From: Candidatus Rokuibacteriota bacterium | Lineage (GTDB): Bacteria > Methylomirabilota > Methylomirabilia > Rokubacteriales > CSP1-6 | Direction of reading: 5' to 3' | Length of the DNA stretch: 33,299 bases | Assembly (NCBI GenBank): GCA_003221515.1 | Contig: QHSI01000021.1 | Location: 1-33,299, forward strand | Shown: one piece after another, positions 6,646-10,445 of the stretch | Numbering within the stretch: position 1 is the first letter of the stretch | How the letters are laid out: each line of letters starts with the position of its first letter | Program-made: the position numbers and the translations under genes | The notes under the pieces: generated by a model | What the model saw: the letters and a program-made list of their open reading frames with translations, nothing else | What the model was told of the DNA's origin: nothing | The model's database searches: none

Positions 6646-8304
6646 CTACTTGAAGCCGCGGTCGATCGCGACGTCGACGAGCGTGGGTCCGCCGTGGGCG
6701 AGGCAGGAGGCCAGCACGTCGCGGAGATCGCCCGGCTTGTCGACGCGCTCGGCGCGAACGCCCAGCGAGCGCGCGAGCCCCGCGTAGTCGATCTCGGGCT
6801 CCACGAGATCCATCCCTGGATAGATACCGCGCTTGGCCGAGCCGAGGCCAAGGCTCAGCATGCCGGACTTGAGGATCGCGTAGGACGCGTTGTTCGGGAC
6901 CACGTACGTGATCGGCAGGCTGTAGTGGGCCGCCGTCCACAGCGCCTGCGGGGCGTACATCACCGAGCCGTCGCCGATCGTCGCGACGACCTTGCGGCCG
7001 CCCGAGGCAAGCTGAACACCGATGGCCGCACCCATGGCCCAGCCGAGGGTGCCGGTCTTGCTGCCGTAGAGCGACCCCGGCATCGAGAACGGCATGTAGC
7101 GGAGCACGAACGGGAGCGAGGTCGCCGACTCGTCAACGACGATTCCGTCGGCCGGAAGCAGCGACGCCAACGTGTGCATGAGGTGCGCCTGGCCGATGGG
7201 CTTGCGTTCGGCTTCAGCCTCGGCGGTCGCCTTCAGGCGGGCCATCAGCTCGCCCCGCGCCTTGCCGATCTTCTCGACGCGCGCCGCCGCCGCCCGCCGT
7301 TCGGCCTCGCCGAGCCGGGTCCGCAGCGCTCCGGTGAGCTCGGCGATCGCCGTGCGCGGGTCGGCGACGATGCCCAGCGCCACCGGGTAGCTGCGGCCGA
7401 TCTCCCACGAGTCGTCGTCGATCTGAACGACGTGGAGACCGCGCGGAAACGGCTCGCCTTCGGTGTGGAGGAACCAGGTGAACACGTTGGCGCCGACCAC
7501 CAGCAGCGCGTCGCATTCCTCGAGCGCTTTTCGCACCGCCGGCGGCGAGGGATAGAGGCCGCCGCGCCAGAGCGCGTGATGGCCAGGGAAGCTAGTGCGC
7601 CGGTACACCGGCTCACCGTGGACCCGCGCGCCGATCAGCTCGGCGAGCTCGGTCAGCTCGTGGACGGCGCCGGACCGCGCGACGCCGTCGCCGGCGATGA
7701 TGATCGGCGCCCGCGCTCCCGCGAGCAGCCCCGCGGCCCGACCGATCGCGCCAGCCTCCGGTCGAGTGCGCGACGCGACGGGCAACGGACCGGCGCCGGC
7801 GTCCTCGACGACGGCGCCCATCAGCTCCATCGGCAACGAGAGGAACACGGGTCCGGTGGGGGGTGTCAGCGCGATCTTGAGCGCCCGGCGCAACACCCCG
7901 GGGGCTTCCGGGGCCCCGCGGATCTGGTAGGACCACTTCGTGAACTGCTCGGCCATCCGGACCAGATCGCCCGCGAGGATCGGATCATCGACGAGGAACC
8001 GCGTATCTTGTTGACCCGCGGTCAGGACCAGCGGCGTCTTGGCTCGCGCCGCATTGTGGAGGATCGAGAGGCTGTTGGCGAGGCCCGGAGCGACGTGCAC
8101 GTTGGCGACGCCCAGCTGCCCCGAGGCCTGCGCGTAGCCGTCGGCCGCCGCTACGGCGGTGGCTTCCTGGAGCCCCACGACGTACTCGAGGCCGGAGTCC
8201 GGCAACGCGTCGAGGAACGGGAGCTCGGTGGTGCCGGGGTTGCCGAAGAGACGGCGGACACCGGCCGACCGGAGAATCTCCATCAGGACCGCGGCGACGT
8301 TCAT
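6646..8304 (-). CDS. TPP-dependent decarboxylase, benzoylformate decarboxylase-like
   Basis: 552 residues aligning with Pseudomonas benzoylformate decarboxylase (MdlC) through FGNPGTTELPFLD, LQEATAVAAADGYAQASG, NVHVAPGLANS, KTPLVLTAGQQ and the TPP motif IGDGSVMYAPQALWTAAHYS. The TPP-activating Glu (E in LQEA) and the His of NVH (H70 in MdlC) are present. The substrate-contacting Ser26 of MdlC is Thr25 here, and the region of MdlC His281 reads VFTWFLH, so an aromatic or branched 2-oxoacid decarboxylase is likely but benzoylformate itself is unproven. It starts 13 nt after the TAG that ends the PCYCGC reading, consistent with one operon. No mandelate-pathway genes are seen. Confidence 0.85.
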   Translation of the reverse strand: MNVAAVLMEILRSAGVRRLFGNPGTTELPFLDALPDSGLEYVVGLQEATAVAAADGYAQASGQLGVANVHVAPGLANSLSILHNAARAKTPLVLTAGQQDTRFLVDDPILAGDLVRMAEQFTKWSYQIRGAPEAPGVLRRALKIALTPPTGPVFLSLPMELMGAVVEDAGAGPLPVASRTRPEAGAIGRAAGLLAGARAPIIIAGDGVARSGAVHELTELAELIGARVHGEPVYRRTSFPGHHALWRGGLYPSPPAVRKALEECDALLVVGANVFTWFLHTEGEPFPRGLHVVQIDDDSWEIGRSYPVALGIVADPRTAIAELTGALRTRLGEAERRAAAARVEKIGKARGELMARLKATAEAEAERKPIGQAHLMHTLASLLPADGIVVDESATSLPFVLRYMPFSMPGSLYGSKTGTLGWAMGAAIGVQLASGGRKVVATIGDGSVMYAPQALWTAAHYSLPITYVVPNNASYAILKSGMLSLGLGSAKRGIYPGMDLVEPEIDYAGLARSLGVRAERVDKPGDLRDVLASCLAHGGPTLVDVAIDRGFK

Positions 8305-8317
8305 GGCGCGGAAGATA

Positions 8318-8770
8318 CTACCGCGGTGTGGGCGTCGGGGTCCCGAACTTGAGGTACTTCGCGTCGATGGCTGCGCGGATCGCGGCGAGCGGCTTGCCCT
8401 CCGCCTTCATCTGCATCACGTCCCGCGTGATGTCGAGGCAGAGCGTTCAGGTCGCGGCGTGGCTCGTGAAGGTGACCCGGCCCGCCGGCTCGTCCTTGAT
8501 GTAGCAGGAGCGGTTCGAGACGTGGCCGAACCGCTCACACCCACACGTGCACGGGATTTTTCCGAGCGTGTCGGGATTCGCCAGCGCAAACGTGTAGAGC
8601 CGGGCCGCGTCGCCCCTGGCCGCGAAGACGGGCAGCTGACCGCGCGCCACGGTCTGGTTCTGATCGCCGATCGCGTCGATCGTGACGCCGCCATCGTCGG
8701 CCCAGAGCCACCAGACGGCGCCGGTAGCCGTGAGCGCCAGCACGAGGACGACGACGAGTGCCCGGATCAC
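8318..8770 (-). CDS. PCYCGC-family protein with in-frame TGA: candidate selenoprotein
   Basis: Read with TGA 8447-8449 as selenocysteine, this is 150 residues. Residues 1-23 form a hydrophobic signal/anchor, so the protein acts outside the cytoplasmic membrane. The family signature is KIPCTCGC (C74, C76, C78), then FGHVSNRSCYI (C89), then TSHAAT-U108-TLC111-LDITRDVMQM, ending in a TPTPTP tail at a TAG (8318-8320). In PCYCGC proteins (PF13798, from memory) the 'HG..C..CxDI' segment has a CxxC, and here its first Cys is TGA. All 42 codons after TGA keep the frame and family pattern (LDI, KAEGKPLAAIR, IDAKY). Taken as a true stop, the protein would be 107 residues and lack this conserved end. 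Start is GTG 8770, sharing GTGA with the DUF1285 gene. Function of the family is unknown; thiol/selenol redox or metal binding is inferred. The alternative is a nonsense mutation or sequencing error. Confidence 0.72.
8399..8443 (-). promoter_or_regulatory. Candidate bacterial SECIS element
   Basis: Immediately 3' of the in-frame TGA on the minus strand is a perfect stem CATCACG / CGTGATG (8414-8432) with loop CGGGA. The loop starts 21 nt after the TGA and has G as its second base. An outer helix pairs CTCTGCCT (8436-8443) with AGGCGGAG (8399-8406): eight pairs, one of them G-U. Bacterial SECIS elements lie within the coding region with the apical loop about 16-37 nt from the UGA and a G among the first loop bases, which this fits. 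No folding program was run. Confidence 0.6.
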
Positions 8771-9219
8771 GCGCCGCGCTCCAGCGGATAATGCCGTTCC
8801 CCGAGCTGCAGCGTGCCGCGCCCGGTGTCCTCGTCGTACTGGGCGAGCGCCAGGAGCTGGAACGCGGCCGCGCGGCTCAGCCGGGCCTCGAAGGCGCCGC
8901 CTTTGACCGCGCAGTACGGGACGTCGTCGTGGCCGATCCTCAGCGTGCCCGGATCGACGTCCTCGCTCGTGCCGTCGATGAGGACGGCGTTGAGCGCGTC
9001 TTCGCGGCGCTGGATACGGGCGACGACGAAGGGGACGTCGACGACGGCGACCGGGATGCGCACGCGCGTCTGGATGAAGTATCCCTGCCCGTCGCGGCGG
9101 AGGCCCGAGCGGAGATTGGCGAGGATCCCGGGATGGGTGATCTGCACGTCGTCATCGTACCAGTCGCCGTTCACGTCGACCCGGAGGTTCGGGAGGGTCC
9201 ATTGTGCTGGCGTCGTCAT
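8767..9219 (-). CDS. DUF1285-family protein
   Basis: 150 residues from ATG 9219, which overlaps the stop of the MEMO gene (ATGA). The sequence follows the DUF1285 pattern: NLRVDVNGDWYDDDVQITH (about 9-27), LRRDGQGYFIQTRVRIPV and VVDVPFVVAR, then a second half with IGHDDVPYCAVKGG and ARLSRAAAFQLL. These are small soluble proteins of unknown function. There is no signal peptide or catalytic motif. Its stop overlaps the GTG of the PCYCGC gene (GTGA), so the two are translationally coupled. A reading from 9267 would be 16 residues longer but overlaps the MEMO gene further without an SD. Confidence 0.8.
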   Translation of the reverse strand: MTTPAQWTLPNLRVDVNGDWYDDDVQITHPGILANLRSGLRRDGQGYFIQTRVRIPVAVVDVPFVVARIQRREDALNAVLIDGTSEDVDPGTLRIGHDDVPYCAVKGGAFEARLSRAAAFQLLALAQYDEDTGRGTLQLGERHYPLERGA

Positions 9220-10445
9220 TCGAACGAAACGCTGGCGAAGGACACCACCCCCTGAGGATCGGGCCACTGACCGTAGCGCTTCACGCGGCCGGCGCCGCCG
9301 CCGAGCACTTTCAGCAGGGCGTAGATCGGCGAGAGGCCACAGATGCGCCGCCGGTCGCCGTCGCGGGCCACCGCGTCGAAGAACGCCTGCGCGTCCCCGG
9401 CGGCCACCGGCTCGAGCATCTCGCGGTCCTCGCGCTCGATCTGCGCCAGCTCCGGCGCGGAGACGAGCTCGGGATCACCGAAGCGTGGCCCCACGTGCGC
9501 CAGGTCGGCGCCCGCCACCAGCGCGACGCGCCACCCGCTCGCCGCGATCGTGTCGGCCAGCGCGTCCAGGAACCGGGGCACGCGCGGATCGGCCTCGGGC
9601 CGTCGCCCCGCGAGCATCGCCTCATGGGCGAAGCTCGCCAGCACCGGCACGATCCGGATGTCGCGGCGGTCCGCGTAGAGGTAGCGAAGGCACACGGCCT
9701 GGAACTCGATCGAGTGCTCCGTCCGGTGCGCGAGCTCCGAGCCGAAGCAGTCCTGGCGCGACCGCGCAGCCAGCGCCTCGACGAAGTCGCGGTCGACCTG
9801 CGCGGCCCCCAGCGGGCTTTCGTAGTCCTTGCGCGTCAGCGCCCAGGGATCCGCCATCCCGGTGTGGCAGGTGCCGAAGATCACGAACAGGTCCGCGTCG
9901 CATCGCTCCGCGACGTCGCGATAGGCCCACGCGTACGCCGGGCCGCCGCGGTGGAAGTCGATGTGGGGCGCGATGACGGCCCGCACCCGGGAGCCCTCGG
10001 TCCGGTATCCGGCGATCGGACCCGGGCCGTCCGGCGGAGCGAAGAAGCCGTCGATCATCGTTCGGAGCTCGTCGGCCTCTCCGGCGTATGCGCCGCCGGC
10101 GTGGGTCGCCCGGCGCGTCGGCGCGGCGAGGAAGCCGCCATCGATCGACGCACGGCGCTCGGCGAAGCCGGGGCTGTCGAGAAAGCCCTGCTGATCGAGC
10201 GCCTCGGCGATCTCCTCGATCTGGCGCCGCTCGATCAACTTGCCGCCGTGGCGCCGCATCACGGCCGCCTGGATCTCGGCGACCGTGTGCTCGCCGTCGA
10301 ACAGCGACACGATCTCGAGGAGGGGCCCGTGCAGCAGCACGATCGAATCGGTGTACCCCGCGGGATCGCGAAGGGCCACGCAGCTCCGCCCCTCGTGCTC
10401 GACGGGAAAGGCTTCGACGTGGCGGAGGCGCGGTGCGTCGGACAT
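9216..10445 (-). CDS. MEMO/AmmeMemoRadiSam B-like protein with N-terminal PqqD-like domain
   Basis: 409 residues. Residues about 112-409 match the MEMO family (PF01875; AmmeMemoRadiSam protein B, related to the class III extradiol dioxygenase fold): AGGAYAG, VIAPHIDFHRGG (H161), FGTCHTG (H194), HSIEFQAV, VAGADLAHVG and ICGLSPIYALL. The His/Cys set suggests a metal site. Residues about 20-92 form an extra domain resembling PqqD/RRE winged helices (LLEIVSLFDGEHTVAEIQAA ... IEEIAEALDQQGFLD); that assignment is weaker. Partners of the AmmeMemoRadiSam system (AMMECR1 and a radical SAM protein) are not in the window. ATG 10445 overlaps the stop of the M20 gene by one base (TGATG), and the end overlaps DUF1285 (ATGA). 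Function is unknown. Confidence 0.85.
   Translation of the reverse strand: MSDAPRLRHVEAFPVEHEGRSCVALRDPAGYTDSIVLLHGPLLEIVSLFDGEHTVAEIQAAVMRRHGGKLIERRQIEEIAEALDQQGFLDSPGFAERRASIDGGFLAAPTRRATHAGGAYAGEADELRTMIDGFFAPPDGPGPIAGYRTEGSRVRAVIAPHIDFHRGGPAYAWAYRDVAERCDADLFVIFGTCHTGMADPWALTRKDYESPLGAAQVDRDFVEALAARSRQDCFGSELAHRTEHSIEFQAVCLRYLYADRRDIRIVPVLASFAHEAMLAGRRPEADPRVPRFLDALADTIAASGWRVALVAGADLAHVGPRFGDPELVSAPELAQIEREDREMLEPVAAGDAQAFFDAVARDGDRRRICGLSPIYALLKVLGGGAGRVKRYGQWPDPQGVVSFASVSFE

What the first reader, a model, noticed from the sequence alone, without database searches (positions are those of the whole stretch)
8399..8443. SECIS-like stem-loop directly after the TGA
Perfect 7-bp apical stem CATCACG/CGTGATG with loop CGGGA, loop 21 nt after the TGA, G as second loop base, plus an outer 8-pair helix. 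This is independent support for recoding; a chance nonsense mutation would not be expected to have this geometry.
Basis: partly seen in the sequence, partly recalled or inferred. Interest (0 to 1): 0.75.

Follow-up and report, generated by a model that had tools for sequence, protein, structure and literature searches.

The report
Selenocysteine signal hairpin in PCYCGC gene
The hairpin just after an in-frame TGA stop codon is very probably a real signal that makes the bacterium insert selenocysteine there instead of stopping; the protein family was already listed as a selenoprotein family, so this is a well-supported but expected case.

Summary
The stem-loop exists as described: 7 bp, loop CGGGA, 21 nt after the TGA, meeting all four published bacterial SECIS criteria. 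In this sequence alone it is weak evidence: four of seven pairs are dictated by the amino acids ITRDVM, and 18% of synonymous sequences would form the stem. Comparison makes it strong. All 81 PF13798 (PCYCGC) matches in the phylum carry TGA at this codon. Among 59 distinct TGA homologues with this motif the inner six pairs are intact in 59; among 20 distinct Cys homologues, in 2. The freely wobbling pairs and the loop Arg codon (CGT/CGG 59 of 59, CGC never) are held at nucleotide level. A sister subfamily uses a different hairpin shifted by one base, intact in 34 of 34. The genome encodes SelA, SelB, SelD (itself with a Sec codon and hairpin) and tRNA-Sec. The outer helix is not conserved. So this is a SECIS element in a UxxC selenoprotein gene. 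The family is already catalogued (CYCXC/OS_HP4), but this protein belongs to a sister subfamily below NCBI's selenoprotein-model cut-off, and a relative in Thermomicrobium roseum is annotated as ending at this very TGA. New member of a known kind.

The parts
8318..8770 (-). Selenoprotein gene, 150 residues, GTG start, TAG stop, Sec at codon 108; PF13798 PCYCGC family, N-terminal helix (possible membrane anchor) then CxCxC...H...C...UxxC domain
   Evidence: Translation with TGA=U; PF13798 81.6 bits with read-through against 37.9 bits for the part before the TGA; predicted structure mean pLDDT 87.3 with U108 just before helix 109-123
8447..8449 (-). In-frame TGA read as selenocysteine
   Evidence: TGA at the same column in 81 of 81 matches in the phylum; Cys at this column in 48 of 71 loci from other groups, Sec in 22, Arg in 1
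8414..8432 (-). SECIS apical stem-loop (CATCACG-CGGGA-CGTGATG)
   Evidence: conserved in TGA homologues and not in Cys homologues
8421..8425 (-). Apical loop CGGGA (most relatives CGTGA); G then G/U, inferred contact site of SelB
   Evidence: Loops CGTGA 49 and CGGGA 10 of 59; Arg codon CGC 0 of 59 although it is 58% of Arg codons upstream in the same genes
8397..8445 (-).
   Evidence: Pairs kept in 17-31 of 41 relatives
8767..9267 (-). Upstream 166-codon ORF whose TGA stop overlaps the selenoprotein's GTG start (GTGA); neighbour, function unknown
   Evidence: also found beside the gene in 24 of the 80 other loci fetched from the phylum
9216..10430 (-). Memo-like protein gene (PF01875, 128 bits), conserved neighbour, stretch as I searched it

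Best explanation
The stem-loop is a bacterial SECIS element. The mRNA hairpin starts 14 nt after the UGA, so it can stay folded while the UGA sits in the ribosomal A site; SelB carrying GTP and Sec-tRNA(Sec) binds its small loop and delivers selenocysteine at codon 108, making a UxxC protein of the PF13798 family. The element is written inside the codons for the conserved peptide ITRDVM, so it serves as RNA signal and protein sequence at once. Shown here: geometry, conservation with TGA, absence with Cys, changes on both sides of pairs, selected synonymous sites, presence of the machinery genes. Inferred from established knowledge of the Sec system: binding by SelB and insertion of Sec. Inferred only weakly: that the protein is an envelope-anchored thiol/selenol redox or metal-handling protein.
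For: 81 of 81 PF13798 matches in 95 genomes of the phylum have the TGA. Inner six pairs 59 of 59 TGA versus 2 of 20 Cys with the same motif; both wobble pairs kept 59 of 59 versus 2 of 20. 7/7 pairs in 55 of 59 where coding alone predicts 10.4; in Cys 2 of 20 where 3.3 are predicted. Loop Arg codon CGT 49, CGG 10, CGC 0, versus CGT 7% and CGC 58% upstream in the same genes. Changes on both sides at four pairs, 0 of 500 shuffles. Sister subfamily hairpin in a shifted register, five inner pairs 34 of 34. Any 5-bp SECIS-like hairpin: 96 of 97 distinct TGA sequences, 8 of 47 distinct Cys. tRNA-Sec with anticodon TCA, SelA 566.8 bits, SelB 359.2 bits, SelD 339.1 bits with its own in-frame TGA followed by an 8-bp hairpin whose loop is also 21 nt away.
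Against: The sequences are related, so the counts are not independent: on the tree only 3 independent TGA/Cys pairs lie on well-supported branches; they agree but cannot reach significance. Pair 19-29 covaries in Cys homologues too, so that pair is not diagnostic. SelB does not separate the groups: over cut-off in 19 of 21 TGA genomes and 35 of 42 Cys genomes outside the phylum. Seven of the TGA-bearing genomes of the phylum gave no SelB at E 1e-80 (draft assemblies). One TGA homologue, L042, lacks the hairpin. No Rfam family matched. No protein-level evidence of Sec exists here.
Confidence: 0.95

Rival explanations
1. The stem is only a by-product of coding: ITRDVM codons are nearly self-complementary, and the hairpin has no function.
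For: Four of seven pairs are fixed by the amino acids; 17.6% of synonymous sequences form the stem; Cys homologues also pair 83.6% of cells.
Against: Free wobble pairs kept 59 of 59 with TGA, 2 of 20 with Cys; Arg codon choice in the loop opposite to the genes' usage; a different hairpin in the sister subfamily.
Confidence: 0.02
2. The TGA is a nonsense mutation, pseudogene or assembly error and the reading frame after it is dead.
For: The genome is a draft of 191 contigs; one relative (L042) has a second TGA, a lost Cys and a broken stem and does look decayed.
Against: TGA at the same column in 81 of 81 loci of the phylum and in 22 of 71 loci from other groups, including a complete Thermomicrobium plasmid; conserved protein after the TGA.
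Confidence: 0.01
3. TGA is reassigned genome-wide (to Trp or Gly) or simply read through, without a SECIS.
For: The frame is open past the TGA.
Against: Homologues have Cys there, not Trp or Gly; neighbouring genes end in TGA; the tRNA with anticodon TCA is a tRNA-Sec.
Confidence: 0.01
4. Sec is inserted, but with an extended element in which the outer helix also matters.
For: RNAfold adds an outer helix in this sequence.
Against: Outer pairs kept in only 17-31 of 41 relatives.
Confidence: 0.05

Closest known systems
Bacterial SECIS consensus (bSECISearch model, as given in PMC13188914 section 5; best characterised in E. coli formate dehydrogenase genes)
   Same: Stem 4-16 bp, loop 3-9 nt, G in the first two loop positions followed by G or U, 16-37 nt from UGA, energy at or below -7.5 kcal/mol
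   Different: Sequence unlike the E. coli elements as I recall them; built into the codons of a conserved ITRDVM peptide
CYCXC family selenoprotein, hypothetical protein OS_HP4 (NF041379; listed with PF13798 and UxxC in PMC13188914, and as OS_HP4, UxxC in PMC9312934)
   Same: Same Pfam family, UxxC, Sec-containing
   Different: The window protein scores 62.9 bits, under the NF041379 cut-off of 90; it belongs to a sister subfamily with a different SECIS sequence and register
PCYCGC motif-containing (lipo)proteins on plasmids
   Same: PF13798-type CxCxC and a conserved CxxC or UxxC
   Different: Of the four plasmid records I opened, three have Cys (Paenibacillus, Exiguobacterium, Burkholderia) and one has Sec (Thermomicrobium)

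Membership tests
Bacterial SECIS element | 3-9 nt loop on a 4-16 bp upper stem | tested here: met
   5-nt loop, 7-bp stem
Bacterial SECIS element | G in the first two loop positions | tested here: met
   CGGGA; CGTGA or CGGGA in 59 of 59
Bacterial SECIS element | 16-37 nt between UGA and loop | tested here: met
   21 nt
Bacterial SECIS element | Minimum free energy at or below -7.5 kcal/mol | tested here: met
   -7.7 for the 19-nt hairpin
Bacterial SECIS element | Conserved with UGA, not with Cys | tested here: met
   59 of 59 versus 2 of 20
Bacterial SECIS element | Bound by SelB and needed for Sec insertion | not testable with these tools
   Needs experiment
Selenoprotein gene in a Sec-using genome | SelA, SelB, SelD and tRNA-Sec in the same genome | tested here: met
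Selenoprotein gene in a Sec-using genome | Cys homologues at the UGA position | tested here: met
   48 of 152 loci have Cys, 103 TGA, 1 Arg
Selenoprotein gene in a Sec-using genome | Sec present in the protein | not testable with these tools
   Needs mass spectrometry or 75Se labelling
PF13798 PCYCGC | Score over gathering cut-off 25 | tested here: met
   81.6 bits
NF041379 CYCXC family (seleno)protein (OS_HP4) | Score over curated cut-off 90 | tested here: not met
   62.9 bits; two sister-subfamily members 121.1 and 136 bits

The most novel reading that the evidence does not exclude
The window gene represents a second selenoprotein subfamily of PF13798, separate from OS_HP4 proper and lying below NCBI's model cut-off, spread over Methylomirabilota (Rokubacteria), Chloroflexota with Thermomicrobium, Acidobacteriota and Tectomicrobia, and at least once deposited as a protein truncated at its Sec codon. 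Its RNA signal shapes the protein: the loop fixes Arg (R in 59 of 59 Sec forms; Q or K in 12 of 20 Cys forms, counted), and pairs of residues change together (ITRDVM, VTRDVT, VARDAM, ITREVM) so that the hairpin survives.
Probability: 0.5. Interest if true: 0.4.

Novelty: new member of a known kind. Interest (0 to 1): 0.28.

Why it matters
It turns a tentative hairpin into a tested SECIS, shows that the PF13798 selenoproteins are wider than the curated model covers, and points to truncation of such proteins in databases (Thermomicrobium roseum WP_012642643.1 stops at the Sec codon). It also gives a clean natural example in which an RNA signal and a conserved peptide motif are encoded in the same 19 bases, with Cys relatives as the built-in control. 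The kind of element and the family as a whole were already known, so the general surprise is limited.

Tried and rejected
Rejected: coding constraint alone, pseudogene or assembly error, reassigned TGA, and the outer helix (reasons under rivals). Led nowhere: Rfam scan of 8250-8900, three chance-level matches; search of solved structures by sequence, none at E 0.1; fold search of the AlphaFold model, nothing at E 0.001 and no chain at Z 5 or more, so no function from fold; SelB co-occurrence, too common in all groups to discriminate; tree-based independent pairs, only 3 on supported branches. Among the Cys homologues two (L136, L139) do carry a 7/7 stem counting G-U. L125 and L176 are the same gene and both stand in the 152 loci; distinct-sequence counts are not affected. 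L156 (Arg) is in neither the TGA nor the Cys counts. Not all TGA matches were fetched: 30 loci of each search were. The motif filter [IV][TA][RKQ][DE][VA][MIT] was chosen after seeing the rows; the hairpin count without it (96 of 97 versus 8 of 47) does not depend on it. Codon usage for the synonymous test came from three genes of the window and was applied to all species.

Full report
OBSERVATION. On the minus strand the TGA lies at 8449-8447 and is followed, 14 nt later, by CATCACG (8432-8426), loop CGGGA (8425-8421) and CGTGATG (8420-8414). The 61-nt fold gives -24.4 kcal/mol, z -2.60, 3 of 200 shuffles as good; the 19-nt hairpin alone -7.7 kcal/mol.

THE GENE. With TGA read through, 8770-8318 encodes 150 residues matching PF13798 PCYCGC at 81.6 bits; the part before the TGA alone scores 37.9. 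NCBIfam NF041379, 'CYCXC family (seleno)protein' OS_HP4, matches at 62.9 bits, under its cut-off of 90. Two reviews list OS_HP4 as a UxxC selenoprotein family, the newer with PF13798 (PMC9312934, passages; PMC13188914, passages and section 5). The original 2007 paper is not held.

THE MACHINERY. The same assembly has tRNA-Sec (69.8 bits; anticodon TCA), SelA (566.8 bits) and SelB (359.2 bits) on one contig, and SelD (339.1 bits). SelD itself has an in-frame TGA followed by an 8-bp hairpin, -12.6 kcal/mol, whose loop is also 21 nt away and begins with G. So Sec use does not rest on this gene alone.

IS TGA CONSERVED? In 95 genomes of the phylum, 70 have a PF13798 match, 81 matches in all, every one with TGA inside, and in all 81 it falls at this column. 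Record titles of close relatives read Candidatus Rokuibacteriota. Outside, of 71 loci kept, 22 have TGA, 48 Cys and 1 Arg; they come from the phylum of L128, a Chloroflexi contig (search of 400 genomes), the phylum of L125, an Acidobacteria contig (396 genomes), named contigs and plasmid records.

CODING CONTROL. ITRDVM is nearly self-complementary: pairs at positions 16-32, 17-31, 19-29 and 20-28 after the TGA are forced by the amino acids. With the codon usage of three window genes, 17.6% of synonymous sequences form all seven pairs. The geometry in one sequence is therefore weak evidence. What is informative are the wobble positions. Of 59 distinct TGA sequences with the motif, the inner six pairs are intact in 59 and all seven in 55 (10.4 expected from coding); of 20 distinct Cys sequences, 2 and 2 (3.3 expected). 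Both wobble pairs are kept in 59 of 59 and 2 of 20. Outside the phylum alone: 18 of 18 versus 2 of 20, Fisher p 6e-9, not corrected for relatedness. Without any motif filter, a hairpin of at least 5 bp with G in the first two loop bases is present in 96 of 97 distinct TGA and 8 of 47 distinct Cys sequences. Most of the Cys-bearing genomes tested also have SelB (35 of 42 over cut-off; TGA genomes 19 of 21), so the stem goes with the TGA, not with Sec ability in general.

LOOP. The Arg codon in the loop is CGT 49, CGG 10 and CGC 0 times of 59; upstream in the same genes CGC is 115 of 199 Arg codons and CGT 14. This points to selection on the RNA, giving G followed by U or G, as the published model has it. 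The window carries the rarer CGG form.

COVARIATION. On the 57 distinct rows, four of seven pairs have changes on both sides, 0 of 500 shuffles reach that, and 99.0% of cells pair against 4.0-67.9% for slid versions. Examples: VTRDVT (L028, L038, L052) makes G-C of A-U at 16-32; ITREVM (L045) makes C-G of G-C at 21-27. The A-U to G-C change at 19-29 (VARDAM) also occurs among Cys homologues and is not counted as proof.

SISTER SUBFAMILY. Members with DITLDAYAM or DEALDAS score 121.1 and 136 bits with NF041379 (two scanned), that is, OS_HP4 proper. Their hairpin is different and shifted by one base: TACGC-TGGAT-GCGTA or GAGGCGC-TGGAC-GCGTCTC, loop after 22 nt. Its five inner pairs are intact in 34 of 34 distinct sequences; the two outermost fail in about half. 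The Leu codon in this loop is CTG in 34 of 34, against 62 of 150 upstream. Two unlike sequences with one geometry at one place are the best sign of function.

OUTER HELIX. Its ten pairs are kept in 17-31 of 41 relatives, against 40-41 for the apical stem. I do not count it.

TREE. With the Sec column and the stem codons masked, the tree needs 12 Sec/Cys changes, but only 3 independent pairs lie on supported branches; the stem goes the same way in 2.3-2.6 of 3 on average and almost never the other way. Direction agrees, power is too low.

FUNCTION OF THE PROTEIN. AlphaFold gives mean pLDDT 87.3, an N-terminal helix 3-22 and U108 just ahead of helix 109-123, a placing common for redox UxxC/CxxC sites (recalled). 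No solved fold matched. The neighbours are a 166-codon ORF, whose stop overlaps the GTG start, and a Memo-like gene; the 166-codon ORF is beside the gene in 24 of 80 other loci of the phylum. A Cys relative lies near copper genes on an Exiguobacterium plasmid. A redox or metal role is a guess.

LITERATURE. Searches for selenoprotein with OS_HP4, selenocysteine with Rokubacteria, selenoprotein with Methylomirabilota or Thermomicrobium roseum, groundwater MAGs with deep-Sep, and PCYCGC showed me no paper describing this subfamily's SECIS in the held library; of most hits I saw the listing only. The newer review mentions a Methylomirabilota MAG with 63 predicted selenoprotein genes from a study that I did not see, which may already contain it. 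From the deep-Sep paper (PMC12013277) I saw passages.

VERDICT. A SECIS element, in a known selenoprotein family, in a subfamily that the curated model does not reach.

Noticed in passing
L099 1375-1692 (NC_011961.1, Thermomicrobium roseum plasmid): WP_012642643.1 is annotated as ending at a TGA that is followed by the same hairpin (CATCACG-CGTGA-CGTGATG); the frame continues with the conserved C-terminal part, so the deposited protein looks truncated at its Sec codon.
   Followed up: partly
L156 1453-1830 (Chloroflexota genome G311): A relative with an intact hairpin (loop CGTGA) but CGA (Arg) in place of TGA: a recent change or a sequencing error. The genome has SelB over cut-off.
   Followed up: no
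L042 / L124 (NC10 bacterium SPGG6): A copy with a second in-frame TGA, a lost Cys (PCYCGL) and a broken stem; looks like a decaying gene.
   Followed up: no
L189 1531-1590: SelD of the same genome has an in-frame TGA (AACAGUASK) followed by an 8-bp hairpin with loop GATC, also 21 nt away.
   Followed up: partly
L097 3664-3761 and 4896-8406: tRNA-Sec, selA and selB lie together on one contig of the genome.
   Followed up: partly
window 9216-10430: Memo-like protein gene two ORFs upstream of the selenoprotein, conserved as neighbour in a number of relatives; a link between Memo and this selenoprotein is untested.
   Followed up: no
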